A DNA stretch of 64,000 nt from a virus: positions 43,481 to 107,480 of IMG/VR virus record IMGVR_UViG_3300025707_000006, one strand, 5' to 3'. The notes beneath the pieces are model-generated. The model was not told where the DNA came from, did no database searches, and saw nothing but the letters and a program-made list of their open reading frames with translations. Positions within the stretch are counted from its first letter, which is position 1. Every line of letters starts with the position of its first letter. Position numbers and translations under genes: made by a program. Positions 841 through 58,054 of this stretch are shown piece after piece.

Positions 841-1501
841 TTGGATAAGGCAAGGATTAATAGGGACACACCCTATACACCTACCTTATCTAGTATCAAG
901 AGGGGTGAATGAAAGTTGTCTAGTAGATTTCTACTCATGGCAACCCCACACCAATGTTCAATGTCCAAAGTTTAAAGCTAACTTTGGACATTCAGGTGAG
1001 CGTATTAAAGACTCACTCATAATCCCTATTACTTCCCCACGAGGGGAGATCTTAGGGATGGAAACACGCAGGATCAACGAGGACGGGTCTAAAAGAGTAC
1101 ATCAGTACCGAACCCTCAATGCTCAATGGAATCCTTATGCTTTAGGTGCAGAGGAAGGTTTTAAGGCATTGTGGGAACTAGGAGATTTATGGGTTGTTGA
1201 GGGGATCTTTGATAAGATCTCTCTCGATAAGGTCATACCTAGTTGTGATGCCTGTATCTCAACCTTGAGGGCTGGTATGGATGCTATCACAATGGACATG
1301 ATAGAGCGTTTCTACACACCTGCCTCAACCATATACATCTGTTATGATAATGATGAGACAGGTCAGAAGAAATCATATTGGCTTCAGCGTGAGATGAAGA
1401 AGCGAGGTATGAGGGCTGTTATCTGGAAGTATCGAGGGAAAGACCCTAACGATGTGTGGACACAAGGAGGAGATCAAGCTCTAAGGAGAATGTTCCTGTA
1501 A
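830..1501 (+). CDS. Toprim-domain protein, DnaG-primase-like
   Basis: The 223-residue product has the Toprim hallmarks: a Glu in WVVEGIFDK (about residue 124), the DxD-type motif in YICYDNDETGQ (about 173-175), then KDPNDVW (about 204-210), as in DnaG-type primases. This domain binds Mg2+ for primer synthesis. The N-terminus has SLIIPI..PRGEILGMETR, typical of the region before Toprim in phage primases, but there is no full CHC2 zinc finger and no helicase domain, so it may act with a separate partner. The start is GTG, overlapping the preceding gene. The 3' end overlaps the convergent gene on the other strand by 28 bases. Confidence 0.75.
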   Translation: MRDDWIRQGLIGTHPIHLPYLVSRGVNESCLVDFYSWQPHTNVQCPKFKANFGHSGERIKDSLIIPITSPRGEILGMETRRINEDGSKRVHQYRTLNAQWNPYALGAEEGFKALWELGDLWVVEGIFDKISLDKVIPSCDACISTLRAGMDAITMDMIERFYTPASTIYICYDNDETGQKKSYWLQREMKKRGMRAVIWKYRGKDPNDVWTQGGDQALRRMFL

Positions 1502-2775
1502 TCTTCTTCAATATCTCTTACTTCTAAATCCATGATTGCGTAAGAAAGCCCATCAACACCTCTCTTACTTTCATTTAGATTTATAGTAAAGTGTTTAGTT
1601 CCTGTTGTGATGTCCTCATCTTCTTCATTCTCAAAATATTCAATAACACATTGAATGTCCAAACGAAAATCTTCTTCATCGAAGAAAATCTTATCCCTTT
1701 CGAGATAATAATCGGAAAGCTCATATACCTCTCTACCTAGTTCAGTGCTTATCCACCTATCCACAACCTTAATCAAATGTTTTAATGCTTTCCCACTTCT
1801 ATCTATTAAGTTAAGATTAATCGCCTTACGAGCGTTACCGTAGGATTGTTTTTCGAGTCTTGCGATCCTCATCTCAAGAGGATTAATGATTTCTGATGCT
1901 GATCTTCGGTTAGAGGTACTTTTCAGATGTTTTACCACTTCTTTACGATCATGCTTTCCATCTACACTCCCTACTTCAACCCCGACAGGTTTTGCATCGG
2001 GAGAGCTAAAGTAAATGTAAGCCAAAAAGTGTTCATCAACCATACCCTTCTCTTCACAAAAGTCATCATAGCATATTTCTTTCTTTTGACCCTTATCAAT
2101 CAAAAGCTCATAAAGACCCTGCTCGGATTTGATTTGCACAGCTTTGAGAATCTTTGGTCTGCTTTTGAAACCTTTGATAAATTTGGCTCTTTCAGCGGCT
2201 TTAATGACTTCTGTCTCCGTTAAACCAAAAGAGTCTTTTACCCATCTTTGAGAGAAGAAGTCTTTAACATCTTTAAAGTTAAATGCTTGTTTTTCAAGTC
2301 TAGCGATACGACCCTGTTTACGAAGCCTATCTCGCTCTTGGTTGACCATTTTTTGATGCTCCTCTACTTCTTTACGAGCACTCTCTTGACCTACACGATA
2401 AATAACTTGATCAACGACTCGTTTAATGAAGTTTCTTTCGCTCATCTTTGAGTCATTTGCACCACTCAGTTCAAAGTCTACTTGTCTAAAGTCTCTGTTT
2501 CCACCTGTGATCTTGTACTCAGCAGTATCTTTCCCTTCTCTTTTTAGAGAGACTTGGTACACCTCACCTTCAAATTTGAACTTCCCTGATAACCGATTGT
2601 CCTTATCCATTTTCACATCAGAATTGACTGCTCTGTTGTCTTTTAGTCCTTTTAAAAACCACCCATGTACCGTATCTAGGGGGTTTTTTTCAAAAAGTCC
2701 AAAGATTGCTTGTTTTTCAAGACGAGCAATCCTCATCTGAAGGTTATTAATAATTTCACTGGCAGATCTTCTCAT
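1474..2775 (-). CDS. Multi-domain protein with three copies of the shared leader
   Basis: The ATG at 2775 is preferred because GGAGAA lies just upstream and the product then begins with the leader RRSASEII...RIARLEKQ (residues 2-22). The core RIARLEKQ recurs at about 156-163, and a nearly full leader recurs at about 290-311. Each copy is followed by a different, unrecognised stretch, so the protein reads like three leader-plus-domain units fused in frame. No enzyme motif was recognised. The gene is preceded by motif B and an inverted repeat that pairs with the ribosome-binding site. A virion protein processed at its internal leaders is the best guess, by analogy with phage internal head proteins, but this is inference. 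Confidence 0.75.
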   Translation of the reverse strand: MRRSASEIINNLQMRIARLEKQAIFGLFEKNPLDTVHGWFLKGLKDNRAVNSDVKMDKDNRLSGKFKFEGEVYQVSLKREGKDTAEYKITGGNRDFRQVDFELSGANDSKMSERNFIKRVVDQVIYRVGQESARKEVEEHQKMVNQERDRLRKQGRIARLEKQAFNFKDVKDFFSQRWVKDSFGLTETEVIKAAERAKFIKGFKSRPKILKAVQIKSEQGLYELLIDKGQKKEICYDDFCEEKGMVDEHFLAYIYFSSPDAKPVGVEVGSVDGKHDRKEVVKHLKSTSNRRSASEIINPLEMRIARLEKQSYGNARKAINLNLIDRSGKALKHLIKVVDRWISTELGREVYELSDYYLERDKIFFDEEDFRLDIQCVIEYFENEEDEDITTGTKHFTINLNESKRGVDGLSYAIMDLEVRDIEEDYRNILLRA

Positions 2776-2778
2776 AAT

Positions 2779-2822
2779 GGTTCTCCATTTGATTAAGGTT
2801 AGACTGATCACTTATGAGAACC
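2779..2822 (-). promoter_or_regulatory. 5' UTR inverted repeat burying the Shine-Dalgarno
   Basis: Read on the minus strand, GGTTCTC directly after motif B is an exact complement of GAGAACC, which contains the ribosome-binding site of the gene starting at 2775. The arms are 7 bases each, at 2816-2822 and 2779-2785. The leader mRNA could fold to mask translation initiation or protect the 5' end. Confidence 0.5.
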
Positions 2823-2838
2823 TATAAATAAACTATTA
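2823..2838 (-). promoter_or_regulatory. Motif B, putative late promoter
   Basis: The minus strand reads TAATAGTTTATTTATA, identical to the copies at 8652, 9137 and 59226, and lies just after the stop codon of the upstream gene. Position and recurrence suggest a phage-specific promoter for the gene at 1474-2775. No start site is known. Confidence 0.55.
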
Positions 2839-2841
2839 AAG

Positions 2842-3174
2842 TCACCACCATGAGAGGTAAACGATCTCATACCCATCGTCTATTGCCTGTATAGCCGATT
2901 CTATGAACCTCCCTGTTTGAGTCTCCTCATATTTGCCACTCACTCCCCAAAAAGACCCTTTCGCTGTTTGTAAATTTTGATATTCATCTTTGAGTCTTAA
3001 CAAGTCATCTTTGTCTAGGGAAAGCTCAACGCAGTTGAAACTCTCAGCGTTACCTCCTTTGGCATAGTATAACTCAGACATCCAGCCTTCAAGGTTGGCG
3101 TGTTTACGCCACTGTATGATGTAGGTGTCTTCTTCGTCTTGTCGTCTTGTGAACGCATATTGATCTAATCCCAT
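2842..3174 (-). CDS. Conserved phage hypothetical protein (MGLDQYA family)
   Basis: The product has 110 residues. The N-terminus MGLDQYA, then IQWRKHANLEGWM and FNCVELSLDKDDLL, match a small family I know from many phages (MGLDxY...WRKxxxLxxWM). Its function is unknown to me. A good ribosome-binding site (GAGGAG) precedes the ATG. It is the last gene of a minus-strand group starting at 3888, and its stop abuts motif B of the next transcription unit. Confidence 0.7.
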   Translation of the reverse strand: MGLDQYAFTRRQDEEDTYIIQWRKHANLEGWMSELYYAKGGNAESFNCVELSLDKDDLLRLKDEYQNLQTAKGSFWGVSGKYEETQTGRFIESAIQAIDDGYEIVYLSWW

Positions 3175-3190
3175 TTATTGCTCCTCTGTG

Positions 3191-6822: not shown

Positions 6823-7278
6823 TTAGTATTCCTTACCTTTGGGTTCTTTTGTGATGTCTCTACGCCTATCTTTTAAACCCGCTTCACTAGCTTGAAGAAC
6901 TAAGAATTTTTGAATGTCTCTCTTAGGGATATTTTTGTCTACACCAGTAGCTGTGACAACCGCAAACAGATCTGCCATCGAATTTTTATGCTCTCCTTGC
7001 TGATACAAATTCATTGCCACTGATACTTTAATTTTATCACCATTATGTTCAATAATGGCTGTGTTCTTTGAACCCATGCCTAGCCTTTTTTGTATTTCTG
7101 CGTACCCTATCCCATACATAGGGTTACCATGAAACCAAAGTGATGCGGTATCAAACTTGGGCCTCTTTTTTTGTTCTCTTTCAGGTTCTTTAAATAAGTC
7201 CAAGATAGCACCTAAAAAACCTTCTTTTTGCATATATCTGTACGCAACTCTACTAGCCATCTTATTACGAGTTCTCAT
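6823..7278 (-). CDS. Leader-type protein, RVAYRYM variant
   Basis: The product has 151 residues. The N-terminus MRTRNKMASRVAYRYMQKEGF resembles the looser form of the shared leader (RVASRxx). The rest contains SLWFHGNPMYGIGYAEI and KIKVSVAMNLYQQG; no family recognised. AAAGGAAATAAACC precedes the ATG, and motif B lies upstream, so late expression is likely. A packaged or virion-associated role is inferred only from the leader and promoter. It is convergent with the gene ending at 6741. Confidence 0.6.
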   Translation of the reverse strand: MRTRNKMASRVAYRYMQKEGFLGAILDLFKEPEREQKKRPKFDTASLWFHGNPMYGIGYAEIQKRLGMGSKNTAIIEHNGDKIKVSVAMNLYQQGEHKNSMADLFAVVTATGVDKNIPKRDIQKFLVLQASEAGLKDRRRDITKEPKGKEY

Positions 7279-7336: not shown

Positions 7337-7888
7337 TTAGTCCCAATCCTCCCAATCATCCTCTTCTTCCAAAGAAGGGTAAGACTCATTGTCCTTAATA
7401 TCGTTCTCTACCTCAGTAACACCTTTAAAGGCACTCGAACCCCAAATACAACCACTACCTACATCCCAAGGGTAGTACCAATGGACTCTCAGTCTCTCAC
7501 TCGATTGAAAGGGGCAGATTTCTATACCATCATAATCTTTTGAGACAGCAACCCAATCTATCGCATCTTCCCCACCTATTTCTATGCCATACTTCCCTGT
7601 AAACATCCATAATTCTTGTTTTATTCGTATTACACACATACGATTAAGATTTACTTCAAGTAAATATTTATGTTGGTATCCCGAAGCCCAACTAGGGTTC
7701 CGACTTTGCACCCACTCTTTCCAATCCTTATCGCAAGCATACCAAAGACCCTTTGGTTTTTGGAGGGCACTTATAGTCTTGTCCTGTCGAACATTCCGAA
7801 ATGACCCCATTGGTCTTGGAGAATACACCATACGATCATAGCTTTTCGCTTGAATGTGTAGAGTTGCGATTTTTCTGATTACATCCAT
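7337..7888 (-). CDS. Unknown phage protein with KPKGLW motif
   Basis: The product has 183 residues. After a basic, helical N-terminus (VIRKIATLHIQAKS, reminiscent of the shared leaders) it has RMVYSPRPMGSFRNV, KPKGLWYACDKDWKEW and HKYLLEVNLNRMCVI. The KPxGLW...W pattern occurs in small phage proteins of unknown function; the layout loosely resembles ADP-ribosyltransferase-fold proteins, but no catalytic triad could be assigned. The C-terminus is very acidic. AGGAGAG precedes the ATG and a motif B variant lies upstream. Confidence 0.55.
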   Translation of the reverse strand: MDVIRKIATLHIQAKSYDRMVYSPRPMGSFRNVRQDKTISALQKPKGLWYACDKDWKEWVQSRNPSWASGYQHKYLLEVNLNRMCVIRIKQELWMFTGKYGIEIGGEDAIDWVAVSKDYDGIEICPFQSSERLRVHWYYPWDVGSGCIWGSSAFKGVTEVENDIKDNESYPSLEEEDDWEDWD

Positions 7889-7919
7889 GATACTCTCCTA
7901 TATAATATATGTAAGAGAT

Positions 7920-7937
7920 TAGATAAAGGAACTACAA
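7920..7937 (-). promoter_or_regulatory. Motif B variant, putative late promoter
   Basis: The minus strand reads TTGTAGTTCCTTTATCTA, then CTCT and later AGAG overlapping the ribosome-binding site of the gene starting at 7888. It lies in a short divergent region shared with the GIY-YIG gene. Confidence 0.4.
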
Positions 7938-7939
7938 AT

Positions 7940-8284
7940 ATGAGTGAATGGGTCGTATATGTCATCCAGAGTCAGCAGATCAGACGCTCTGCTAAGACAG
8001 GTAAAGAACTACCTGGTTTCTTCTATGTAGGTTGCACCACAGATGTTAACCGTAGGCTGAGACAGCATCAGGGTTTCATCAAAGGAGGCGGGAAATACAC
8101 TGCAAAGCACCGACCTTGGAAGCTCATGTGTACTTATGGCACATACGCTAATAGATCAGAAGCCATGAAAGCTGAGATGGCTCTAAAGAAAAAGCGTGGT
8201 AAGGCTAGGCTCTATTGGACAGAGCAAGAGTCTAAATGGTGTCGAGGTCGTAAAGAAATAGGACTTAAAAACGACTGTATTTAG
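7940..8284 (+). CDS. GIY-YIG endonuclease-domain protein
   Basis: The product has 114 residues and a GIY-YIG nuclease core: VYVIQ (residues 6-10) and FYVG (28-31) form the paired motif, followed by RRLRQHQ with the conserved Arg and His, GGGKYTAKHRPWKLM, and a Glu in KAEMALKKKRG. This matches the small UvrC/YhbQ-type family that cuts DNA. There is no added DNA-binding domain, so it could be a repair enzyme, a host-DNA degrader or a minimal homing nuclease. It is divergent from the gene at 7337-7888 and its end overlaps the opposite gene by 20 bases. Confidence 0.8.
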   Translation: MSEWVVYVIQSQQIRRSAKTGKELPGFFYVGCTTDVNRRLRQHQGFIKGGGKYTAKHRPWKLMCTYGTYANRSEAMKAEMALKKKRGKARLYWTEQESKWCRGRKEIGLKNDCI

Positions 8285-8603
8285 CTATGTCTGAATCCAT
8301 CTGTTCATTCATCATCCCATGAGGCGGGTTTCCAATATCTAAAGCGTCACCCGTAGATGTTGTCATAAGAATATGATGATACTTTGAGTAGTTTATTTCT
8401 ACACCATTAGAAAGAGAGATAGAAACCATCTCTCGACCTGTAGGGTCCTTCCCTCTTTGCACATCAACAACATTTCTGTTTGATAGTTTTTGCTCGGCAA
8501 GATCGTGAACATAACGCAGATCTACGGCCTCACTAGCAAACCTTTCAAGTTTCGCAATCCTAGTCTCAAGGTTTCTAAGGATTTCTGATGCAGATCTTCT
8601 CAT
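8265..8603 (-). CDS. Shared-leader protein, unknown C-terminal domain
   Basis: The product has 112 residues. Residues 2-22 carry the shared leader (RRSASEIL...RIAKLERF), followed by an unrecognised domain containing GREMVSISLSNGVEINYSKYHHILM and DALDIGNPPHGMM. A TGGAGAAA site precedes the ATG, and motif B sits 50 bases upstream. The DNA from the promoter through the leader closely resembles the copies at 2755-2840 and 9060-9155. A late, virion-related role is inferred. Confidence 0.65.
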   Translation of the reverse strand: MRRSASEILRNLETRIAKLERFASEAVDLRYVHDLAEQKLSNRNVVDVQRGKDPTGREMVSISLSNGVEINYSKYHHILMTTSTGDALDIGNPPHGMMNEQMDSDIAKYSRF

Positions 8604-8651
8604 AAGGGTTTCTCCATTTGATTAAGGTTAAGATGATCACTTAAGAGAACC

Positions 8652-8667
8652 TATAAATAAACTATTA
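8652..8667 (-). promoter_or_regulatory. Motif B, putative late promoter
   Basis: The minus strand reads TAATAGTTTATTTATA, followed at once by GGTTCTC, which can pair, with one bulged A, with GAGAAACC at the ribosome-binding site of the gene starting at 8603. Confidence 0.55.
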
Positions 8668-8699
8668 AAGTTATGGTGTCGAGGTAGAGAACCTAGATT

Positions 8700-9089
8700 T
8701 TAGAGCCTGCGAAGAACCCTCTTAGACTCCTTGAGGAAGTCTGCCTTAACAGAGTCAGAGTCTGGTCCAACCTCGACACGACCAATGGTCAGTCTACCCT
8801 GGTTTCCTTCAGACACATCAACTAAAATGAGATATCCATTCTTCAAGTCTTCTTCATACACGACATTAACATGATTCATATAGCCATTTGTCCACCTTAA
8901 CGCTCCTGTAGGCGAAGACTCAAGAGTATAACCTAACAATTTAGTTCCCGCTAACCTTCTCACAGATTGCATGGGGGACGAGGCGAGGCTGTGTCGGATG
9001 CGATAGAGGGGATCAGGTGTAGATTGTCTTTCAAGACGAGCGACCCTAGTCTCAAGGTTACGGATGATTTCTGATGCTGATCTTCTCAT
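8700..9089 (-). CDS. Shared-leader protein, unknown C-terminal domain
   Basis: The product has 129 residues from the ATG at 9089, placed by TGGAGAA and by the leader itself (RRSASEII...RVARLERQ, residues 2-22). The remainder, with RYTxE-free beta-like segments such as LLGYTLESSPTGALRW, NVVYEEDLKNGYLILVDV and GRLTIGRVEVGP, looks like a compact beta domain and was not recognised. Motif B is about 45 bases upstream. It is adjacent to another leader gene, but their C-terminal domains are unrelated, showing that the leader is the shared part. Confidence 0.65.
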   Translation of the reverse strand: MRRSASEIIRNLETRVARLERQSTPDPLYRIRHSLASSPMQSVRRLAGTKLLGYTLESSPTGALRWTNGYMNHVNVVYEEDLKNGYLILVDVSEGNQGRLTIGRVEVGPDSDSVKADFLKESKRVLRRL

Positions 9090-9136
9090 AGGAGTTCTCC
9101 ATTTTGTTAAGGTTAATGAGATCACTTAAGATCATT

Positions 9137-9152
9137 TATAAATAAACTATTA
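9137..9152 (-). promoter_or_regulatory. Motif B, putative late promoter
   Basis: The minus strand reads TAATAGTTTATTTATA, starting at the stop codon of the upstream gene (9150). Third member of the duplicated promoter-to-leader block. Confidence 0.55.
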
Positions 9153-9437
9153 AAGTTTAAGGAAAGACTCTACAAGCACCTCTGCGAGATCTTCCCCCTC
9201 AACCCCATGTGAACTTACCCATACCTCCCCATCTCTCCTTACAGACCCATTATTGAGTGCGTATAGGTGGTGGAGGTACGCAAGGGTAACCGTGTCCTCA
9301 AAGTCGGGCAACCATGTTTCACTAGTAAGAGTGTATCTAACTTTTTGTTTAGGTTTGAAGTGAGGGAAAACTAGGATGCCAGTCACGCAGACCCACTTAG
9401 GGTGTTTAACTAAAAGCCTAAGACGATCAATATCCAC
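9150..9437 (-). CDS. Unknown protein
   Basis: The product has 95 residues and begins with GTG, overlapping the end of the zinc-ribbon gene upstream. It contains DRLRLLVKHPKWVCVTGILVF, KVRYTLTSETWLPDFEDTVTLAYLHHLYAL and GEDLAEVLVESFLKL, a mixed alpha/beta pattern. No family recognised. It belongs to the minus-strand group 9150-9863, and its stop codon is part of motif B for the next unit. Confidence 0.55.
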   Translation of the reverse strand: MDIDRLRLLVKHPKWVCVTGILVFPHFKPKQKVRYTLTSETWLPDFEDTVTLAYLHHLYALNNGSVRRDGEVWVSSHGVEGEDLAEVLVESFLKL

Positions 9438-10638: not shown

Positions 10639-10650
10639 AAGGAACGCAAT

Positions 10651-11112: not shown

Positions 11113-11156
11113 CCTCCCTAATTCTCCTATATGTGATCGCAGAATATGTAGCCTAA
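11088..11156 (+). CDS. 22-residue membrane peptide
   Basis: A strong GAGGAGG site sits eight bases upstream of an ATG encoding MWAIAVFITSLILLYVIAEYVA, one hydrophobic helix. It overlaps the 3' end of the GGCT-like gene in another frame. The perfect ribosome-binding site argues for real expression. Function unknown. Confidence 0.5.
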   Translation: MWAIAVFITSLILLYVIAEYVA

Positions 11157-11255
11157 ACAAGCACTTCCAAATAAAAGCAAATACACATCATAAGCTCTTC
11201 TGAGTAGATACAATCCATCATATTAACTTGTCTTTTTGTATGTTATATCGCATAT

Positions 11256-19913: not shown

Positions 19914-20262
19914 ATCAGTACAACGAGTTGCTTCAAAATATATGGAAGCAAGATTATTTGGAATACTTAGTACTCCTGTTAGCAATCAGGAAATAAGAAG
20001 AGCAGTTAAAAGATTACAATGGGCTTTCCCAAAAGGTGAATACAAAGTCATGTCCATTATGGGGCAAGACAGGAAGAAAGTGATTAGGACTACTACACCA
20101 GATGGTTTCTTGTCTGAGATTACTGGTCTTGAAATGGACAAAAAAGGGAATCTATCTTATCGGGTCTTAACTGTGTCTAACCCTCATGGCAGAGACATTA
20201 AAGTTGATAGTTTAGACGAAGCGACAGATACTGTATATAGATTATTAAAGAATCACTTGTAA
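19906..20262 (+). CDS. Leader-type protein, RVASKYMEARL variant
   Basis: The product has 118 residues from the ATG at 19906 (AAGGAAAAAGAAG upstream), overlapping the previous stop. Residues 2-16 (NKSVQRVASKYMEAR) match the looser shared leader. The body (IRRAVKRLQWAFPKGEYKVMSIMGQDRKKVIRTTTPDGFLSEITGL) is a small alpha/beta domain I do not recognise. It sits between the two paralogous holin-like genes. Confidence 0.6.
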   Translation: MNKSVQRVASKYMEARLFGILSTPVSNQEIRRAVKRLQWAFPKGEYKVMSIMGQDRKKVIRTTTPDGFLSEITGLEMDKKGNLSYRVLTVSNPHGRDIKVDSLDEATDTVYRLLKNHL

Positions 20263-20720: not shown

Positions 20721-21170
20721 ATGAGAAGATCCGCATCAGAAATCATCCGTAACCTTGAGTCTAGGATTGCTCGTCTTGAACGACAATCGGGTCGAGGATC
20801 AAATCGTCTTGAAAGACAAGCAAGACCAAATGAGAAAATAGAAAATGAAACATCAAAAACAATTCTCACTAAGAAGCAATGGGCAGGGATTGCAAAGACA
20901 CACGCCCCAAAACCTTTTGAGAATCCTCTTGGAGATCAAGAGGTGTATTATGACTATCGCAGAGGAGGTATAATCGTTGATGATCGTGATGAGCATGGTG
21001 ATGATGGAGAAATATTTCTAATCAAAGAGATTAAGGGGGGCGGGGCTGAGGGTGCATTTCAAGTCTATCAAGAGGTTTATCCAGATGCTAGACTGGGCCA
21101 AAATGGCTGGAATTTTGATGATATGAAGTATTTAGGGAAGACACTAGATCAACGAGCGAGGAGGGGATAA
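20721..21170 (+). CDS. Shared-leader protein, unknown C-terminal domain
   Basis: The product has 149 residues. Residues 2-22 have the shared leader (RRSASEII...RIARLERQ) and a second short RLERQ follows at about residues 29-33. The rest, with KPFENPLGDQEVYYDYRRGGIIVDDRDEHGDDGEIFLIKEI and AFQVYQEVYPDARL, looks like a globular alpha/beta domain of unknown type. TGGAGAAATAAA precedes the ATG and motif B is upstream. Confidence 0.65.
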   Translation: MRRSASEIIRNLESRIARLERQSGRGSNRLERQARPNEKIENETSKTILTKKQWAGIAKTHAPKPFENPLGDQEVYYDYRRGGIIVDDRDEHGDDGEIFLIKEIKGGGAEGAFQVYQEVYPDARLGQNGWNFDDMKYLGKTLDQRARRG

Positions 21171-21670: not shown

Positions 21671-22662
21671 GTATCACTATAGAGAAAGGTAGTAAAAGCT
21701 ATCCTCCATCTAATATACAAGTTCTTCTATGTAAGGATAGTGTAGTCTTAGGTGAAGTTAATGGGTATAGTGTGAACATGGAATACTCAGAGGTCGATGG
21801 CTCTGAATGCTATGAAGAAATATACGACCTTATTGAAAGATACCCTCAAGTCCTAGATGAAAACGGTAAACCTAGAATATCTGAAATTTACCAATCCGAT
21901 ATAGTTAAGTCTTTTAGAGGACAAGGCTTCGGTGTTGATATGTATATAGAGTTCATGCTTCGGTGTTGGGCTGAAAATAGTAAGGGCAAACCATTTATCC
22001 TAATCCCTAACGGTTGCAACTTAGATATGGAGGGGAACAACTCAGAGGACTCTATAAGAGTTTGGGAATCTCTAAGTCGTAAGTTTCCGAGTTCGGGAAA
22101 AAGCTACTCAACTTGCATTGCAGTGTTAAGGAAACCATCCTCAAGTAAAATGGCTCAAAGAGTTGCGAGTAGACATATCGCTCGTCTTGATATTAAGTTC
22201 GTAGAAACGGATGACTTCACTAATACAAATTCAACTCATTCGATAGAGATTGTAAATAATAAAGTGAAATTATATAGGGATGTTGTAGGTTTTATAGAGG
22301 GTAAGTTTGGAACCCATACTTTAGAAGAACTATATGAATATGCCTGTTCTGAAGATATTTTAGCCCTTTATGAACTATGGGCGATAGATGCTGAATGGCA
22401 CGATGAGATCCCTGTATTTGAAGTCTTAGAGAGCAGTGTCGATGAGGAGTATCGCTCAAAAAAGTTAGGTCTTCAAATGTATAAAGAACTCGCCAACTTA
22501 GCTAGGGAAGAGTCTAGGACACCAATGTTCTTTATCCCTAACTACTGCAATACGAGGTCTACAACCCCTTCAGCACTAAGGGTTTGGAAATCCTTAACAA
22601 AATCAAATGCTCCGACCAGCTCTGGTGATGTTGTTTTGATGGTAGATCGAAAGTTGAGATAA
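21667..22662 (+). CDS. Two-part GNAT-like protein with internal leader
   Basis: The product has 331 residues. The first half has SFRGQGFGVDMYIEFML (about 82-98) and the second has EEYRSKKLGLQMYKELA (about 260-276), each resembling the acetyl-CoA-binding RxxGxG/A loop plus following helix of GNAT acetyltransferases; the second loop lacks the last Gly. Between them lies KMAQRVASRHIARL at about 161-174, matching the looser shared leader. There is no ribosome-binding site in front of that internal Met, so the two halves are made as one chain that could later be cleaved. Function is inferred. Confidence 0.55.
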   Translation: MSITIEKGSKSYPPSNIQVLLCKDSVVLGEVNGYSVNMEYSEVDGSECYEEIYDLIERYPQVLDENGKPRISEIYQSDIVKSFRGQGFGVDMYIEFMLRCWAENSKGKPFILIPNGCNLDMEGNNSEDSIRVWESLSRKFPSSGKSYSTCIAVLRKPSSSKMAQRVASRHIARLDIKFVETDDFTNTNSTHSIEIVNNKVKLYRDVVGFIEGKFGTHTLEELYEYACSEDILALYELWAIDAEWHDEIPVFEVLESSVDEEYRSKKLGLQMYKELANLAREESRTPMFFIPNYCNTRSTTPSALRVWKSLTKSNAPTSSGDVVLMVDRKLR

Positions 22663-22664: not shown

Positions 22665-23720
22665 ATGAACAGATATGCAAGTGTAAATAGAGTCGCCCGT
22701 ATCCATACAGCTCGTATGCAAAAGAGAGCGATGTTCTTTGATAATGTCAAAGAAGATGTAGCTTCAGCCTTCATGCAAAATGAAGCGTCAAAAGAACGAA
22801 AGAAGATTTCTAGCGAAGGTAAGTCTGGATTAAAGTTCTTGCAGAAGCAGTTTGGACTAAACTCAATGGATTCCTTCATCAAAGCGATTGGGCAATCTAA
22901 ATATGATCCCAATGACCCAATACAAAAAATGATTGCAGAAGCTGGGGCTAAAACTAACTCGCCAGGTGAAGCAGGTGATATGTTAGGTAGGTTCGCTAAT
23001 GCTTATCAGAAGCAAGACATTGAGGGGATGGCTAAAGAGGTAGGAGTTGAAAAAGAGACTATGGCTCTCGTCCTGCTCTGGTATGTGAGAGACAATAAAA
23101 ATGTGAAACTCAAAAATGCTTCCATGAACAAAAATGCTTTTTGGAATCCATTTGCCGTTGCTCCTGTCCCCCCACTCCCCCCTTTCCACGCACAATCTGT
23201 TGTAGTGGAAAATGTACTAAATATAGGTGGTGGTGTGGTTAGCCAAGTATCTCACTATACAGGTGAAGGGATTTCATGGCTTTGGTCTATAATCCCTTCA
23301 GGGTATGCTCCAACTTTACCCACAGGTAAAGTGTGGACTGCAATATACTTCATTCTGAAGAATGCATGGCTAGGGATTATGAAGGCAGGTGGCCTAGCTA
23401 TAGGGGCGATTAAAGCGTCAATAGTTAAAAGCACAGCGACATTCGGAATCATCGCAGTGCTGAAAGTCATAGGGATTGCACTTATTGTATATTACGCCAT
23501 AATAGGTTTGTCTTGGATGAGTTATCAGATCACAAGACTACCTGCTAGGGTACTAATAGAGTTCCCTGTACAGGTCATATGGAAGATCCTTAAGATGGTT
23601 GGAAATGGTGCTATTAAACTCACCACATGGGCTTATGATAAGATCAAGTCAGTAATCTATGAAAATGAAGACCAAATAGAGCCAAGTGACCCTATGCTCC
23701 CCGCAGTCCAAGCGATTTGA
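22665..23720 (+). CDS. Leader-bearing protein with hydrophobic membrane region
   Basis: The product has 351 residues. The N-terminus (NRYASVNRVARIHTARMQKRAMF) resembles the looser leader. Residues 1-150 are soluble and helical; a second MNKNAFWNPFAV segment and a Pro stretch (APVPPLPPF) lead to a region of several long hydrophobic segments (about 185-320), then an amphipathic and acidic end. A leader-bearing protein with membrane-spanning ability would fit an injected pore or a membrane-active virion protein. It is the last gene of the plus-strand group that starts at 21302. Confidence 0.55.
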   Translation: MNRYASVNRVARIHTARMQKRAMFFDNVKEDVASAFMQNEASKERKKISSEGKSGLKFLQKQFGLNSMDSFIKAIGQSKYDPNDPIQKMIAEAGAKTNSPGEAGDMLGRFANAYQKQDIEGMAKEVGVEKETMALVLLWYVRDNKNVKLKNASMNKNAFWNPFAVAPVPPLPPFHAQSVVVENVLNIGGGVVSQVSHYTGEGISWLWSIIPSGYAPTLPTGKVWTAIYFILKNAWLGIMKAGGLAIGAIKASIVKSTATFGIIAVLKVIGIALIVYYAIIGLSWMSYQITRLPARVLIEFPVQVIWKILKMVGNGAIKLTTWAYDKIKSVIYENEDQIEPSDPMLPAVQAI

Positions 23721-53259: not shown

Positions 53260-53634
53260 ATGTATAGATCATCAGCGTATTTAAATGAGATAACAAGCAA
53301 ACTGGACTCAAAAATTAAGTCGAACGCTTCTTCAATCAAAGCTGTTGTTAATGGCTTTGAAGAGAAGGTGCTTAAAGAGCCTATCGAGTTTAAGGTAGGG
53401 GATTACATTATTACTGTTAAAGCAACAGGAGAGAGATCGAATCCAGACCTTCACCTCACTTGCTCCTGTAACTATTGGCAGTATCAAGGGCCTGAGTATC
53501 ATGCAGTCCAAAACGATTACTTGTTTGGTAAAGTGAGAGGTACAGCAGAACAACCAACCAAAAAAGACCCTAAAGGTACTCACAAAGTGTGTAAACACGC
53601 CTATGCGGTCTTGAGGGATTTCTTTGGAGCTTGA
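53260..53634 (+). CDS. SWIM zinc-finger domain protein
   Basis: The product has 124 residues. CSC at about 68-70 followed by CKH at about 111-113 gives the CxCx(n)CxH pattern of SWIM domains, which bind zinc and interact with DNA or proteins. The N-terminal part (MYRSSAYLNEITSKLDSKI) is helical and resembles a leader-like segment. It overlaps the start region of the zinc-ribbon gene that follows. Function in this phage unknown. Confidence 0.65.
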   Translation: MYRSSAYLNEITSKLDSKIKSNASSIKAVVNGFEEKVLKEPIEFKVGDYIITVKATGERSNPDLHLTCSCNYWQYQGPEYHAVQNDYLFGKVRGTAEQPTKKDPKGTHKVCKHAYAVLRDFFGA

Positions 53635-53638
53635 CCTT

Positions 53639-54025
53639 ATGCAATACCCATATAAATGTTCAAAATGCGAGCATGAATATATCTGTTCTATACCTATGGA
53701 CGATTACAAAATACCCCAACCCTGCCCTGAGTGTGGGGTTAAGAATGAAAAGTTGTTCAGACCCACTCGAAACTTCATTCTTAAAGGTGATGGTTGGGCG
53801 GGTAAAAATAGTCGCATAAACCAACAGATGAGAGCTAAAAATAAGAAGCTAGACGCTAGAACAAATGAAATGAAGCGTGATGCTCCTAATGTCACTCTCG
53901 CCCCTAATGTTGATGGGGAGCGTGTAGACTCTTGGTCAGACGCTCAAAAACTCGCCAAATCAAAAGGCAAGAGTACAGAATCTTATGAACCAATGATAGC
54001 AAAAGAGAAAGAGAGTAAGAAATGA
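53639..54025 (+). CDS. FmdB-like zinc ribbon protein, long form
   Basis: The product has 128 residues from ATG 53639, with GGAG ten bases upstream. PYKCSKC and CPEC (about residues 7-10 and 29-32) form the zinc ribbon, then NFILKGDGWAGKNSR, a sequence also seen in the FmdB-like protein at 9427-9609. The remaining 80 residues are basic and helical, with an end rich in Lys and Glu. Its stop overlaps the next gene's ATG. Confidence 0.75.
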   Translation: MQYPYKCSKCEHEYICSIPMDDYKIPQPCPECGVKNEKLFRPTRNFILKGDGWAGKNSRINQQMRAKNKKLDARTNEMKRDAPNVTLAPNVDGERVDSWSDAQKLAKSKGKSTESYEPMIAKEKESKK

Positions 54026-54750
54026 GTAGAGGTCGCTTAATACCAAGCCTTATCTACAGATCAAAAGGTCTAGTAGATATGGTAGTACACAACGCAAACC
54101 TAAGAGGTATGGATCAAATCACTATTTATGGTGCATCTAACCTCAATGATGCACATAACAACCCTGTGGAGATGTTTTCTGTGCCTTATGATAGAACTTT
54201 TAGAAGTCAGTTTATCACTCAGGCAAAGTTAGGTGTTGAAGAATCACAAAGAGATCAAACTCGATTTGTATTTAACCCTAGTGAATATGCTACTACATTC
54301 AAGGCAAATACCCCTCGTATTCCAAATGATGACCAAATGCTCTATCTTAGAGTCAGAGGTCGGCTCCGAGCCACCCAAGAGAACTCAGACTTTGGACCAG
54401 TTGTGGGGGTTGTACCTTACGATTTCTTCTCACTAACTGCTCCTATCTTCACGACTATTGGTAATGCACCAAACCTAGATGCAGGCAATGGTATTCCCGA
54501 TACTCTTAGTACAGGGGCAATGAACTTCCACCTCCCTAGTTTCAGTCAGACTTTGAACATTCAAAATCTTGATTCTCCTCAAGGAGGGTCTAATATGTTC
54601 ATCTCTTTTAATCCAGGAATGTCTCCCTCTATCCTAAGACCAGGAGAAGCATTGACTTTAACATCGGGTGCTGTCGGGGAGTTCTTTTTAGCAGGGCAAA
54701 CAGGAGATCCTTTGTTCACTATCCGATGTTCTGTAGTTAATAGAGGTTAA
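54022..54750 (+). CDS. Probable structural protein
   Basis: The product has 242 residues. It reads as a beta-rich, Gly/Asn/Pro-rich chain (MDQITIYGASNLNDAHNNPVEMFSVPYDRTFRSQFITQAKLG; SNMFISFNPGMSPSILRPGEALTLTSGAVGEFFLAGQTGDPLFTIRC). No catalytic motif. The style is that of small phage head or tail decoration proteins. It is overlapped by the zinc-ribbon gene and followed by the three paralogues at 54826-56946. Confidence 0.55.
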   Translation: MSRGRLIPSLIYRSKGLVDMVVHNANLRGMDQITIYGASNLNDAHNNPVEMFSVPYDRTFRSQFITQAKLGVEESQRDQTRFVFNPSEYATTFKANTPRIPNDDQMLYLRVRGRLRATQENSDFGPVVGVVPYDFFSLTAPIFTTIGNAPNLDAGNGIPDTLSTGAMNFHLPSFSQTLNIQNLDSPQGGSNMFISFNPGMSPSILRPGEALTLTSGAVGEFFLAGQTGDPLFTIRCSVVNRG

Positions 54751-54763
54751 ATGACATCTTCCT

Positions 54764-54779
54764 TAATAGTCTATTTATA
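54764..54779 (+). promoter_or_regulatory. Motif B variant, putative late promoter
   Basis: TAATAGTCTATTTATA precedes the first of three paralogous genes. CCTTAATAGT here is an exact complement of ACTATTAAGG at 54808-54817 that overlaps its ribosome-binding site, so a 10-bp stem is possible if transcription starts early. Confidence 0.5.
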
Positions 54780-54825
54780 ATTTATATGTATATAGGTGAA
54801 CCCCTAACTATTAAGGAGAAAGACA

Positions 54826-55536
54826 ATGCCTTTCATTCTCGCAAGACGATCCGAGATCCAAAATGGGTCTATTCAGATCACAGACCTCTTCCCTAATGTT
54901 TCGCAAAGAAACCTCGTAAATGACCCCGCAGGTCAAGGCCCCTTCTATGTTCGTATCTCAAATATGGGTGCAACAGGTAGGACTCGACCTTTCATCAAGA
55001 CTAATGTTGATGGTTCTCTTGAGTTCCTACAACAATGTAATGGTCTTGTTGCTTACCTCATCGCTAATGTTGAAGCAGATGTCGGTGGTGATGATGACGC
55101 ACTCACTGTACCCGAAGCAGAAGAGATTGCAAATGGACTCCTCGCTAGAGTTCGTGCAGGTCAAACCCTAACACTCGCAAACATCAATGCAGTCTGTAAT
55201 GGTGTTAGTAATGCTTCGGGCTTAGACCAAGGTGACTCTACAGGGTCTGTTTCATCAATCCTTTCTATCCTTGCGGGAGAAGAGTACACAGTAAATGCAG
55301 GTGTTCCTATCCAAGACGCAGGTGGAGACTTTACAAACGGTATCGACCCTGGAACTCTTGGTTCGACCATGAGAAATCTCGTACCTAACGACAGCTCTTG
55401 GAAGATTTCTTTCGCTGAAGGAACTCTTGGTGGGCTTGTAGGTGCTCAAGATCCAAAGAAAACCTTTGGTGGAGTTAACTCTGCTACCCCACTTCTTACT
55501 GTCTACAATGATGACGGTACAATCTACGCAGGATAA
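54826..55536 (+). CDS. Tandem structural-type paralogue 1
   Basis: The product has 236 residues. It begins ILARRSEIQNGSIQITDLFPNVSQRNLVNDPAGQGPFYVR and has VAYLIANVE, AEEIANGLLARVRAGQTLTLANINAVCNGV and SWKISFAEGTLGGLV, all repeated in the two following genes. AAGGAGAAAGACA precedes the ATG. The three are clearly a duplicated family; shape and location suggest head or tail decoration or fibre proteins. Function unknown. Confidence 0.65.
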   Translation: MPFILARRSEIQNGSIQITDLFPNVSQRNLVNDPAGQGPFYVRISNMGATGRTRPFIKTNVDGSLEFLQQCNGLVAYLIANVEADVGGDDDALTVPEAEEIANGLLARVRAGQTLTLANINAVCNGVSNASGLDQGDSTGSVSSILSILAGEEYTVNAGVPIQDAGGDFTNGIDPGTLGSTMRNLVPNDSSWKISFAEGTLGGLVGAQDPKKTFGGVNSATPLLTVYNDDGTIYAG

Positions 55537-55549
55537 TAGGAGATAAACT

Positions 55550-56278
55550 ATGCCATTTCTAACTACTATTAGATACTCTGAGTTTGGCCTCGATTCAAAA
55601 GGCAACTCAAGATTACAGATTACTGACCTCTTCCCTAACAAGAGTCAGTCAAACGCTGTCATCACCCCTCGTTTTCAAGGTCCTTACAACTTCAGACCTG
55701 TTGACGCACAGTCAGCAGGTGCTTTAGTTGATCTGCCTGTTCTCGATGTTGCTCTCGACATCACAACCGAAGTTAGTGGGCTTGCCGCTTACTTCCTCGC
55801 TGTTGTTGAGGATGATGCAGGCACGACTCACATCTCGCCTGCTCAAGCAAGAGACATTGGTTCAGATATGATTGCTAATATGCAATTTGGTAGTCCTCTT
55901 ACCCTCTCTGACATTAACACTAGTATTGTAGGTATTGTCGGTCCTGGCAGTGAGTTGACTAACGCAGGTGGTTCAGAGTCAACAGGTTCTGTTTTAGAAG
56001 TTCTTGAGATCCTTTGTGGAGCTAAGACTTTTACTCTTCCTGTAGGACACTCTGTTGGTGATAATGGAAACCAAAACGCTTTCACACCATTTGTAAACGC
56101 AGACACTCAAGCGGCTGCTTTCACTGCGGTAACAGGATACACAAGTATCCCTTCTACACATGACAGTTTTTATATGTCTGCTCGCAGTGGTCAGATCAAA
56201 ACTGCACAACTAAACTTAAACTCAAACAACCACCCTGTCCTCGTTGCTTATGACGATGATGGTTCTGTCGTTAAATAA
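55550..56278 (+). CDS. Tandem structural-type paralogue 2
   Basis: The product has 242 residues, starting PFLTTIRYSEFGLDSKGNSRLQITDLFPNKSQSNAVITPRFQGPYNF, then LAAYFLAVVEDDAG and RDIGSDMIANMQFGSPLTLSDINTSIVGIVG. It matches its two neighbours across the chain while the termini differ. TAGGAGATAAAC precedes the ATG. Confidence 0.65.
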   Translation: MPFLTTIRYSEFGLDSKGNSRLQITDLFPNKSQSNAVITPRFQGPYNFRPVDAQSAGALVDLPVLDVALDITTEVSGLAAYFLAVVEDDAGTTHISPAQARDIGSDMIANMQFGSPLTLSDINTSIVGIVGPGSELTNAGGSESTGSVLEVLEILCGAKTFTLPVGHSVGDNGNQNAFTPFVNADTQAAAFTAVTGYTSIPSTHDSFYMSARSGQIKTAQLNLNSNNHPVLVAYDDDGSVVK

Positions 56279-56289
56279 GGAGAATAAAC

Positions 56290-56946
56290 ATGGCTAGTCC
56301 AGTAATTTGTATTCGTGACGCATCTATTACAAATGGATCTCTTATGGTCAAAGATATGTGGCCGAATCGCTCACAGGCGAACCCTGTTGTAGACCCTGCA
56401 CCACAAGGTCCTCGCTATCTTCGTGTTGTTCAGAATGTGCTTCCAGCAGTAGCCGCTAATACCGTATCTGTTGAAGTAAGTGGTTTAGCCGCTTACCTTT
56501 TAGTCACTGTTGATACAGGAGCCAATGGTATTAACCCTACACCTGCACAAGCTAAATCAATGGCTGACGCTCTTATCGTTATTATGAGGGCGGGTGGTGA
56601 ACTTAGTCTTCTCAACATAAATGGAGCTTTAGCTGGTGTTGTTGCAGGTACAGGTACTTTTGGTACAGGGTTATCTACTGCAACTGTAAATAACATCCTT
56701 CAGATTCTTGGAGGTGCTCCATTTACTGTTCCTGCGGCAACTCTTGTACTTAATACCTATCAGACGGAAGCGGCTCAAGCGAACCTCTTTACCTCTCACC
56801 ATAATCCTATTGTTGAAGAAGATTCTAGTTTTTGGATTTCTTTAGCACAGGGAGACCTTCTTGGACTTAAAAGTTCTCGTACCGTTAATGGTGTGGTTCT
56901 AGACCCTTATGTGGTAGTATATGATGGAACTGGCGTTGCTCAGTAA
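56290..56946 (+). CDS. Tandem structural-type paralogue 3
   Basis: The product has 218 residues: ICIRDASITNGSLMVKDMWPNRSQANPVVDPAPQGPRYLRV, LAAYLLVTVDTGANG, AKSMADALIVIMRAGGELSLLNINGALAGVV and SFWISLAQGDLLGLK, in the same order as its neighbours. It is shortest, with a compact linker before LAAYLL. AAGGAGAATAAAC precedes the ATG. The third copy ends before a change of gene type. Confidence 0.65.
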   Translation: MASPVICIRDASITNGSLMVKDMWPNRSQANPVVDPAPQGPRYLRVVQNVLPAVAANTVSVEVSGLAAYLLVTVDTGANGINPTPAQAKSMADALIVIMRAGGELSLLNINGALAGVVAGTGTFGTGLSTATVNNILQILGGAPFTVPAATLVLNTYQTEAAQANLFTSHHNPIVEEDSSFWISLAQGDLLGLKSSRTVNGVVLDPYVVVYDGTGVAQ

Positions 56947-56977
56947 TCATATTTATACACATAAGGAGTAAGACAAG

Positions 56978-57199
56978 GTGAAGATTGCCCTATCAGATAA
57001 GAAAGTCTTAGGTGCTTTTTTAAAGCGAAACTCATTTGAAGGTCGTGTTTTAAAAACAGATGGTAATGAGTTAAGAGGAACATGGGGCAACTTACCCCTT
57101 ATTGCTAAATGGGATAAGAAAGATAAACTCATTCAAATCCAATCTAGTGATAAGGGTGTACGCAAGGCACTGTCGGCTTTAGAGACTCTTTTAGAGTAG
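56978..57199 (+). CDS. Unknown small protein
   Basis: The product has 73 residues and starts with GTG (KIALSDKKVLGAFLKRNSFEGRVLKTDGNELRGTWGNLPLIAKWDKKDKLIQIQSSDKGVRKALSALETLL). A GGAG site sits upstream. It appears to be a small beta-barrel or beta-sheet domain with a final helix. No family recognised. Confidence 0.55.
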   Translation: MKIALSDKKVLGAFLKRNSFEGRVLKTDGNELRGTWGNLPLIAKWDKKDKLIQIQSSDKGVRKALSALETLLE

Positions 57200-57251
57200 T
57201 CTTTGGTATTATAGGATTGCATTAACACCCTTGAAACCAAAGGCGTATACT

Positions 57252-57512
57252 ATGGATACCGAGATTAAACCAGAGCCTCTTTACAAGACCTCTGATCTAT
57301 ACTTTGCGGCTTATTTAAAGACCACAGGTATGGAACTATTAAAGACAGAACTAGATGGTCGTAAAGTAATCTTCGTATTTGAAAAGCACCATAGTTTCAA
57401 AGACCTTAAAAGAGAATACTTTAACCGTACCTCAAGAGTACCTGCTCTTACCTTTGTTGATGAGATCAGATCCATGAAGTCTTTAACCTACATGGCTAAA
57501 GAAGATTTATAG
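57252..57512 (+). CDS. Unknown small protein
   Basis: The product has 86 residues from the ATG at 57252 (MDTEIKPEPLYKTSDLYFAAYLKTTGMELLK); the site before it is weak. It contains GRKVIFVFEKHHSFKDLKREYFNRTSRVPALTFVDEIRSMK. This resembles short DUF5659-like domains (SDLYLAAYL...GxxLL...FxFE) of phage and mobile genes, of unknown function. Confidence 0.55.
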   Translation: MDTEIKPEPLYKTSDLYFAAYLKTTGMELLKTELDGRKVIFVFEKHHSFKDLKREYFNRTSRVPALTFVDEIRSMKSLTYMAKEDL

Positions 57513-57522
57513 TTTCTTTATA
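57508..57522 (+). promoter_or_regulatory. Motif B variant, putative late promoter
   Basis: TTATAGTTTCTTTATA begins at the stop of the preceding gene and precedes the leader protein at 57560. Confidence 0.5.
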
Positions 57523-57526
57523 ATTG

Positions 57527-57553
57527 CTCCTTTGTGTCCACAACACAAAGGAG
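57527..57553 (+). promoter_or_regulatory. Perfect 5' UTR stem-loop containing the Shine-Dalgarno
   Basis: CTCCTTTGTGT (57527-57537) and ACACAAAGGAG (57543-57553) are exact complements over 11 bases with a 5-base loop. The second arm holds the whole AAGGAG ribosome-binding site of the gene starting at 57560. Confidence 0.65.
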
Positions 57554-57559
57554 ATTGCT

Positions 57560-58054
57560 TTGAAAAGATTAGCCTCAGAAATCATAAGTGAGTTAGAAAC
57601 TCGTATTGCTCGCCTTGAAAAACAAGCTACTTCAAGTCGCAGAGCCTCAAGTCGCAGAGCCTCAAGTCGATACGCAGACCCATTTTTGGCTGAACTACAA
57701 TCTGACATTGATGACGGTATGCACATGGCAAATGAGTTTCAAGCAGGGAGAAATCCTGATGGTCAAGGGTGGTCGAATGAAACTCAAAAAGATTACAACA
57801 GCCCACCTGCTCCTAAGAACCAAGCAGATTGCTACACCGAAGACAACCTTGAAGGTCTCGGTAAGCCTGGTGATGGGGTGACTTGTTACCGACTCCACCA
57901 TGAATATGGAAAAGCAAACTCTGGAAAACCAGGATCATCAGCAAGACAAAAGTACAATAAAAAGTATCGTGAGAACTTCATGGACTCACCAAGTATCCAA
58001 AGAAAAACCTGTCCAAAACCTGGTGGTGGGAGTGGTCCTTGCAACAGAGGATAA
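57560..58054 (+). CDS. Shared-leader protein with SSRRA repeats
   Basis: The product has 164 residues from a TTG start, placed by AAGGAG and by the leader itself (KRLASEIISELETRIARLEKQ, residues 2-22). It is followed by a short basic repeat (SSRRASSRRASSRYA) and then a Gly/Asn/Pro-rich body (NEFQAGRNPDGQGWSNE ... KKYRENFMDSPSIQRKTC) with four Cys. The DNA under the repeat is a duplicated 15-mer. No enzyme motif was found. Motif B and the perfect stem-loop lie upstream. Confidence 0.6.
   Translation: MKRLASEIISELETRIARLEKQATSSRRASSRRASSRYADPFLAELQSDIDDGMHMANEFQAGRNPDGQGWSNETQKDYNSPPAPKNQADCYTEDNLEGLGKPGDGVTCYRLHHEYGKANSGKPGSSARQKYNKKYRENFMDSPSIQRKTCPKPGGGSGPCNRG

What the first reader, a model, noticed from the sequence alone, without database searches (positions are those of the whole stretch)
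1474..58054. One N-terminal leader shared by about ten otherwise unrelated proteins
Seen: the starts of the proteins at 1474-2775, 8265-8603, 8700-9089, 20721-21170 and 57560-58054 share RRSASEIIxxLExRIARLE followed by [KR]Q, while the bodies have nothing in common. A looser form (RVASRxx, RVAYRYM, RVASKYMEAR, RVARIHTARM) begins 6823-7278, 19906-20262 and 22665-23720. Known: some large phages mark internal head proteins with an N-terminal targeting peptide that a prohead protease removes. Inference: these leaders are a cargo or virion-loading tag. All but the looser members inside multi-gene groups follow motif B, which looks late. No protease gene is in this window.
Basis: partly seen in the sequence, partly recalled or inferred. 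Interest (0 to 1): 0.85.

Follow-up and report, generated by a model that had tools for sequence, protein, structure and literature searches.

The report
Swappable phage cargo behind one tag
A group of very large bacterial viruses puts the same 22-amino-acid tag on dozens of otherwise unrelated proteins and swaps the protein behind the tag like a cartridge, which most likely marks them for loading into the virus head and delivery into the next bacterium.

Summary
A 22-residue leader (MRRSASEIIRNLExRIARLE[KR]Q) begins the five named genes. The window's 107,480-bp record has 15 matches, 13 of them full. Relatives have 31 in 375,691 bp, 23 in 312,136 bp and 12 in 226,698 bp. 105 leader-bearing bodies fall into 51 similarity families.

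In 13 of 17 non-redundant locus pairs with shared upstream DNA, homology stops within 8 nt of the leader's 3' end. At four loci it resumes downstream around different bodies. Leader codons differ while residues are kept. One promoter element precedes 34 of 36 N-terminal copies, against 86 of 663 other ORFs.

The window's record lacks capsid, protease and terminase. A relative has them, and two proteins beside its head maturation protease bear the looser RVASRYM-type tag.

Best explanation: a capsid-targeting tag like that of phage T4 internal proteins, but in many more copies and also at domain junctions; the looser form is also at C-termini. Loading and cleavage are inferred, not shown. New variant of a known kind.

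The parts
2710..2775 (-). strict leader, N-terminus of gene 1474-2775
   Evidence: (E 3.1e-15)
1846..1911 (-). second full leader inside gene 1474-2775 (Met replaced by Asn)
   Evidence: (E 8.7e-15)
2287..2310 (-). short internal copy RIARLEKQ; relative L120 is 96% identical in DNA up to here and carries a different body after it
   Evidence: E 0.004
1474..2775 (-). 433-aa protein built of three leader-plus-body units
2823..2837 (-). AATAGTTTATTTATA promoter element 47 nt before the leader
   Evidence: 0 mismatches
8538..8603 (-). strict leader of gene 8265-8603
8265..8603 (-). leader-tagged protein, 112 aa
8652..8666 (-). promoter element 48 nt before the leader
   Evidence: 0 mismatches
9024..9089 (-). 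strict leader of gene 8700-9089
8700..9089 (-). leader-tagged protein, 129 aa; model has a leader helix 5-21, a stretch under pLDDT 50 at 22-36, then a folded body
9137..9151 (-). promoter element 47 nt before the leader
   Evidence: 0 mismatches
20721..20786 (+). strict leader of gene 20721-21170
20721..21170 (+). leader-tagged protein, 149 aa
20672..20686 (+). promoter element 34 nt before the leader
   Evidence: 1 mismatch
57560..57625 (+). strict leader (TTG start) of gene 57560-58054
57560..58054 (+). leader-tagged protein, 164 aa; orthologue in G005 at 75% identity
57508..57522 (+). promoter element 37 nt before the leader
   Evidence: 2 mismatches
7231..7251 (-). loose tag RVAYRYM near the N-terminus of gene 6823-7278; kept in G001 and G005
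7853..7873 (-). loose-like tag KIATLHI(QAK) at the start of gene 7337-7888; relative L125 has a strict leader in front of the same body (55% identity)
19924..19944 (+). loose tag RVASKYM at the N-terminus of gene 19906-20262; in G005 the same body is fused behind another protein with the tag kept at the joint
22159..22179 (+). loose tag RVASRHI between the two similar halves of gene 21667-22662 (weak GNAT match, below cut-off); G005 has two adjacent tagged genes instead
22689..22709 (+). weak loose form RVARIHT at the start of gene 22665-23720

Best explanation
The leader is a capsid-targeting tag for a changing set of cargo proteins in a lineage of huge phages. Inferred steps: probably late in infection, each cargo gene is transcribed from its own copy of one promoter; the leader helix binds the assembling prohead core or scaffold and draws the protein in; the head maturation protease may then cut the tag off, including at internal tags in fused proteins; the cargo leaves with the DNA into the next host, where it counters defence or helps take over the cell. 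Shown by sequence: one conserved leader on many unrelated bodies, constraint at the protein level, a shared promoter element, body replacement with joints at the leader's end, tags at fusion junctions, loose tags at C-termini and on proteins beside the protease of relatives, and a few effector-type domains behind tags. Not shown: packaging, cleavage or injection.
For: 105 leader-bearing bodies (80 loci kept of 153 confirmed, plus G000 and G001; redundant) form 51 blastp families at E 1e-3, 27 of them single. In G005, 31 tagged ORFs have 2 related body pairs. Joints: 13 of 17 non-redundant pairs with upstream homology break between -7 and +8 nt of the leader end; 4 of 17 run on into the body. 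Both flanks are homologous around different bodies at four loci. Codons switch under kept residues: Ser6 TCA 26 and AGT 16 of 49; pN/pS 0.36 over 49 copies chosen by a regular expression. The promoter element (3 or fewer mismatches of 13, 20-70 nt upstream) precedes 34 of 36 N-terminal copies and 86 of 663 other ORFs of 100 aa or more in G000, G001 and G005. It also precedes the small gene beside the capsid gene, the first gene of the G005 protease cluster, a baseplate gene and a G005 gene like the G001 amidase. G001 has capsid phrog_2522 (E 2.2e-51) and head maturation protease phrog_18299 (E 1.8e-15). The loose tag lies on a protein of that cluster which is kept in LR745208 (45% identity over 179 aa, tag read by eye). 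Tagged bodies: ART-PolyVal 1.9e-12, 2'-5' RNA ligase 4.7e-13, HAD_SAK_1 1.5e-18 and 1.3e-20, C39_2 1.6e-5. [quoted passage not shown]
Against: No virion proteomics. No tagged protein matched a head or internal-protein family: 15 PHROGs over 71 proteins, named ones being polymerase and RNA ligase. The promoter element also precedes a glutamine synthetase, a topoisomerase-like gene and a nuclease-like gene. One body has the leader in G000, none in G001 and another N-terminal domain in G005. LR745208 shares 89% of the capsid protein but has no strict leader at E 1. One of the 13 breaking pairs (L093 and G005 191,916) shares most of its body after an insertion, and two others show weak body similarity (E 0.004 over 22 aa, E 0.012 over 45 aa). 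No common cleavage site was found for the two tag forms. Some tagged proteins do have orthologues, e.g. record 34,060-34,821 at 81% in G005.
Confidence: 0.75

Rival explanations
1. Promoter and leader together are a recombination island. The leader is kept because it gives crossovers a shared stretch and a good translation start, not because the peptide targets anything.
For: Homology stops at the leader end in 13 of 17 pairs. A broken promoter-leader copy persists near record position 24,240.
Against: Codons diverge (mean pS 0.60) while residues are kept, with Ser and Arg codon-class switches. The copy at window 1846-1911 is kept inside a protein with its start codon lost and no promoter seen. 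Loose tags at C-termini cannot serve translation starts.
Confidence: 0.1
2. The leader is an oligomerising or docking helix that takes tagged proteins to another partner in the infected cell, such as the membrane, the tail or a replication site, rather than into the head.
For: Predicted helix followed by a low-confidence stretch; arginine-rich sequence with spaced hydrophobic residues.
Against: Loose tags lie on proteins beside the protease in G001, G005 and LR745208. Several tagged domains resemble those of injected conflict proteins.
Confidence: 0.12
3. The proteins are virion-loaded, but the leader is not cleaved and stays as an anchor in the mature particle. This is compatible with the best explanation except for its cleavage step.
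For: No cleavage motif shared by both tag forms was found. [quoted passage not shown]
Against: Glu7, Glu13 and Glu20 are kept in at least 12 of 13 copies and suit proteases that cut after Glu. A maturation protease is present in relatives.
Confidence: 0.35

Closest known systems
Phage T4 internal proteins IPI-III and Alt with the capsid targeting sequence (PMC3012670, PMC9026906, PMC12373910; passages read)
   Same: Short leader on otherwise unrelated proteins; diverse bodies; an ADP-ribosyltransferase among the cargo; a protease and scaffold system.
   Different: T4 has three internal proteins plus Alt, with at least 10 internal proteins reported among related phages. Here 10 to 31 strict matches per record of 149-376 kb, mostly with their own promoter, also at junctions and, in the loose form, at C-termini. 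Packaging and cleavage are proven for T4 only.
Phage P1 DarB N-terminal capsid localisation signal (PMC9024508, passages read)
   Same: The first 30 residues suffice to direct a reporter to the head.
   Different: Shown for one protein, not as a repeated tag.
Ejection proteins with propeptides in SPN3US and phiKZ (PMC5694885, PMC7411985; passages read)
   Same: Giant phage heads with processed inner proteins; SPN3US gp53 and gp54 share their first 15 residues.
   Different: Mostly long propeptides, and no tag shared by dozens of unrelated proteins in the passages read.
Polyvalent proteins of phages and conjugative elements (PMC5512222, passages read)
   Same: Conflict proteins predicted to be packaged, with ART and metallopeptidase domains; ART-PolyVal matches one tagged protein (E 1.9e-12).
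   Different: Here most units are single small bodies behind one tag, with some fused forms that keep tags at the joints.

Membership tests
Capsid-targeting-sequence cargo (T4 internal protein type) | short shared leader on otherwise unrelated proteins | tested here: met
Capsid-targeting-sequence cargo (T4 internal protein type) | late expression | tested here: inconclusive
   promoter element shared with structural and lysis genes, but also with a few metabolic genes; no transcript data
Capsid-targeting-sequence cargo (T4 internal protein type) | phage encodes a prohead protease | tested here: met
   in relatives: G001 by profile, G005 at 94%, LR745208 at 43%. The window's own record lacks it
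Capsid-targeting-sequence cargo (T4 internal protein type) | scaffold or core that binds the leader | not testable with these tools
   a scaffold candidate is named by position and composition only
Capsid-targeting-sequence cargo (T4 internal protein type) | proteins present in the virion and injected | not testable with these tools
   no proteomics available
Capsid-targeting-sequence cargo (T4 internal protein type) | leader removed by the protease | not testable with these tools
   no cleavage data; candidate Glu residues only
Capsid-targeting-sequence cargo (T4 internal protein type) | leader sequence homologous to the T4 sequence | not tested
   no comparison was run
Polyvalent proteins | multidomain architecture with PolyVal domains | tested here: inconclusive
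   ART-PolyVal in one tagged protein; MPTase-PolyVal only at E 0.023 in a protein without a clear tag in G000. At most 21 of 71 scanned proteins have any Pfam match at E 0.01

The most novel reading that the evidence does not exclude
A position-independent loading and processing tag: the same kind of helix works at the start, at domain junctions and at the end of proteins, so that fused cargo is loaded as a polyprotein and cut apart inside the prohead. The tag's coding sequence doubles as the joint at which new effector bodies are exchanged, giving a huge phage a refillable magazine of more than 30 injected proteins.
Probability: 0.35. Interest if true: 0.9.

Novelty: new variant of a known kind. 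Interest (0 to 1): 0.74.

Why it matters
What huge phages inject with their DNA is largely unknown (my general knowledge). This tag gives a simple sequence rule that lists candidate injected proteins by the dozen, most without a recognised domain, and predicts that their bodies turn over by exchange at fixed joints. If loading is confirmed, the tag would be a handle for finding anti-defence proteins and for packing foreign proteins into very large phage heads.

Tried and rejected
Peptidase S78 (PF04586) in the own record gave nothing; a protease was then found in relatives by reading G001 and by PHROGs. Pfam gave no match for the G001 protease. DNA similarity of window 8265-9125 to named phages gave no match, nor did the 783-aa neighbour protein. 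The strict profile found nothing at E 1 in LR745208 or in Tunturi_5, phage G and Myrna. The loose profile found nothing at E 5 in the last three. A scan of genome contigs matched 30 stretches, none confirmed.

AlphaFold of the 433-aa fusion was uninformative (mean pLDDT 39). The two-sequence model of 8700-9089 was moderate (mean pLDDT 66) and had no PDB match at E 0.001. Cleavage motifs of T4, phiKZ and SPN3US were considered; no single site fits both tag forms, so none is claimed. That strict and loose tags are one family is suggested by a shared R[VI]A core and a small residue eight positions on (A, S or T in 18 of 33 loose hits), but no profile comparison was run.

Sets and drops. Of 86 tagged proteins listed, 70 went into alignment A3, plus one added by me without a tag of its own in G000 (L002:5857-7695); its DUF7717 match is therefore not counted. 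One member, L149:15169-15708, has only a doubtful tag. Of the other 16, 14 were Pfam-scanned; G001 173994-177239 was PHROGs-scanned only; record 35,819-36,934 was not scanned. One search kept 80 of 153 confirmed loci. Four tagged ORFs that cross tile edges were left out's references.

Literature: 3 papers with two of five terms; 2 papers; 8 to 15 listed each at most. These listings show titles and abstract starts only; none mentions this leader. Seven papers were opened, as passages only: PMC7411985, PMC9024508, PMC7824862, PMC5512222, PMC9026906, PMC12373910, PMC3012670, and an eighth, PMC5694885. Reports outside that library were not searched.
Full report
1. Setting. The window is positions 43,481-107,480 of a 107,480-bp virus record. 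The relative's protease, capsid protein and terminase have no blastp match at E 1e-3 among the record's called ORFs, so it is a fragment. Relatives are metagenomic contigs. G001 (226,698 bp) is collinear in part; many shared proteins are 87-93% identical, others 40-80%. G005 (375,691 bp) is similarly close. The nearest public record is LR745208, a 485-kb uncultured phage: 45% identity over the polymerase, 89% over the G001 capsid protein, 43% over the protease.

2. The five strict leaders start where stated. A profile of the record's 13 full copies finds 12 in G001 at E 1.9e-14 to 8.5e-10; the best hit in reversed translations is 0.14. The own record has 15 matches at E 0.01: 13 full (6 in the window, 7 outside), one broken, one short. 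Other records: G005 31, G006 11, G007 10, G008 23, some of the G008 ones covering only part of the profile. G006 and G007 share many equal scores and probably overlap. In viral contigs 384 stretches matched a pattern, 153 were confirmed and the best 80 kept.

3. Bodies. The 80 loci plus G000 and G001 give 105 leader-bearing bodies (redundant) in 51 blastp families at E 1e-3, 27 of them single. In G005 the 31 bodies, 86-288 residues long, show two related pairs. Against G001, the window's strict-leader proteins align over the leader and little else; 8700-9089 has a weak extension to about residue 81. Against G005, 57560-58054 has a full orthologue (75%), and 20721-21170 has a weak 33% alignment beyond the leader. 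Outside the window some tagged proteins do have orthologues, e.g. record 34,060-34,821 at 81%.

4. Exchange at fixed joints. I compared 138 leader loci, 88 after removing near-identical ones, with up to 700 nt on each side. Seventeen non-redundant pairs share at least 150 nt upstream through the leader with at least 300 nt available beyond. In 13 of 17 the alignment stops between -7 and +8 nt of the leader's 3' end; in 4 it continues for 273-700 nt. By my grouping the 13 pairs come from six loci, so they are not independent, and one pair is two neighbouring genes of the same record. Bodies were compared for all 13 (two pairs through their near-identical G001, G000 or G005 copies): nine show no similarity at E 0.1, one (L093 with G005 191,916) shares 88% over 106 residues after an insertion, and three show weak or short matches (E 0.004, 0.012, 0.11). 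At four loci homology resumes downstream for 1.1-2.2 kb: directly at or within 35 nt after the body's stop in most members, but some hundreds of nt later in G001 153,213 and G005 95,435, which carry extra sequence there. In the other direction, of 11 pairs sharing at least 150 nt of body, 6 break between -27 and +26 nt of the leader start. L120 is 96% identical in DNA to the window's gene 1474-2775 until the short internal copy RIARLEKQ, then continues with a different body that is 47% identical to the part of a G005 protein behind that protein's own internal leader. So leaders mark the joints both at gene starts and inside fusions.

5. Constraint at the protein level. Over 49 copies, mean pS is 0.60 and mean pN 0.22. 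Ser6 uses TCA 26 and AGT 16 times; Arg15 uses six codons. The copies were chosen by a regular expression that fixes several positions, so the ratio is a guide only. This still argues against recent copying or gene conversion as the sole cause.

6. Promoter. An element TAGTTT[ACG]TTTATA, mostly 34-54 nt upstream, precedes 34 of 36 N-terminal strict genes of G000, G001 and G005. By the same criterion it precedes 86 of 663 other ORFs of at least 100 aa (17 of 95, 20 of 218, 49 of 350). At 12 bits or more the weight matrix, which was trained on leader genes, scores 31, 42 and 71 hits against 4, 5 and 9 in one shuffle each. Other genes behind it include the small gene beside the capsid gene (G001, G005), the first gene of the G005 protease cluster, a baseplate gene (phrog match), and a G005 gene like the G001 amidase. 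The polymerase and the replicative-helicase-like gene are not in that list. A glutamine synthetase, a topoisomerase-like gene and the nuclease-like gene at 21302 are. Late use is likely but not proven.

7. The looser tag. [RK][VI]Ax[RKQ][YFH][MLI] occurs 5, 8 and 9 times in G000, G001 and LR745208 against 0.09, 0.15 and 0.27 in shuffles. Over four genomes 20 of 33 hits lie within 25 residues of a protein end, 6.4 expected. It lies near the C-terminus of G001 173994-177239 and G005 53586-57101, and at the very end of G001 177246-178025 and G005 57108-58142. The LR745208 homologue of the first (45% over 179 aa) carries a related stretch, RVASAYIKQAVYW, read by eye. These genes lie beside the head maturation protease (phrog_18299, E 1.8e-15) and capsid gene (phrog_2522, E 2.2e-51) of G001.

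8. Fusion and fission around tags. The window's gene 21667-22662, two similar halves with a weak GNAT match, corresponds to two adjacent G005 genes, each with its own tag. Window 19906-20262 is, in G005, the tail of a 948-residue protein with the tag kept at the joint. The first domain of record gene 24332-25375 is a separate gene in G005. In LR745208 387673-388407 a loose tag joins two domains that match two separate G000 genes (E 1e-22 and 6e-27). L108 has its leader at the start; L115 has the same leader and body behind another domain. L125 has a strict leader in front of a body 55% identical to window 7337-7888. Tags at joints thus persist after fusion, which fits a loading or processing role for each unit.

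9. What the bodies do. In 71 proteins 17 Pfam families match at E 0.01, four of them in two proteins and the rest in one. Clear ones behind tags are ART-PolyVal (1.9e-12, G005), 2'-5' RNA ligase (4.7e-13, LR745208), HAD_SAK_1 (1.5e-18, G005; 1.3e-20, L129), WGR (1.2e-12, G005) and C39_2 (1.6e-5, own record). L129 also matches a polynucleotide-kinase PHROG. PHROGs gave 15 families, none a head family. HExxH motifs and the nucleotidyltransferase-like repeat in G005 257901 are read by eye. The set recalls injected conflict proteins (PMC5512222, passages) and includes RNA-repair types.

10. Mechanism. T4 internal proteins and Alt enter the prohead core through a leader of about 10-20 residues that is then cut off (PMC7411985 and PMC9026906, passages). 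[quoted passage not shown] P1 DarB is loaded by its first 30 residues (PMC9024508). The pattern here is the same in kind, so loading into the head is my best explanation (0.75). Cleavage is less certain: Glu7, Glu13 and Glu20 are kept in 90% or more of 13 copies, and the SPN3US protease cuts after Glu, but the two tag forms share no such site. A two-sequence model of 8700-9089 shows a leader helix, a stretch under pLDDT 50 and a folded body.

11. Verdict. A real and striking feature; a new variant of capsid-targeted cargo. The number of copies per genome, the internal and terminal positions, and the joints at the leader's end set it apart. Direct proof needs virion proteomics.

Noticed in passing
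own record G000:C1 about 24,212-24,277 (-), outside the window: Promoter, ribosome site and start of a leader gene followed by a small deletion that shifts the frame: a decayed leader gene.
   Followed up: partly
own record 29,831-31,009 (-) = L002:9831-11009: 392-aa protein starting with a loose tag and holding about six repeats of a DExIIDDxGLGRM type motif (by eye).
   Followed up: no
window 23804-24739 (-): Protein with four near-identical repeats around DDHFDMI near its start (by eye).
   Followed up: no
L021:10944-12512 (G001 170944-172512): Scaffold candidate beside the protease carries an EF-hand match (PF13202, E 1.7e-9).
   Followed up: no
L019:5207-8329 (G001 125207-128329): Terminase large subunit with an intein-like insert (by eye) and an endonuclease PHROG match (E 1.4e-4).
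   Followed up: no
own record 7,487-16,286 (+): Several paralogous genes of about 400 aa with methyltransferase-like motifs (by eye), kept in G001.
   Followed up: no
LR745208 versus G001 and the window: Capsid protein 89% identical while polymerase (45%) and protease (43%) are far apart, which suggests exchange of head genes.
   Followed up: no
window 62973-63045 and 63297-63369: tRNA-Lys and tRNA-Glu genes.
   Followed up: no
G001 139626-140684: Glutamine synthetase gene behind the same promoter element as the leader genes.
   Followed up: partly
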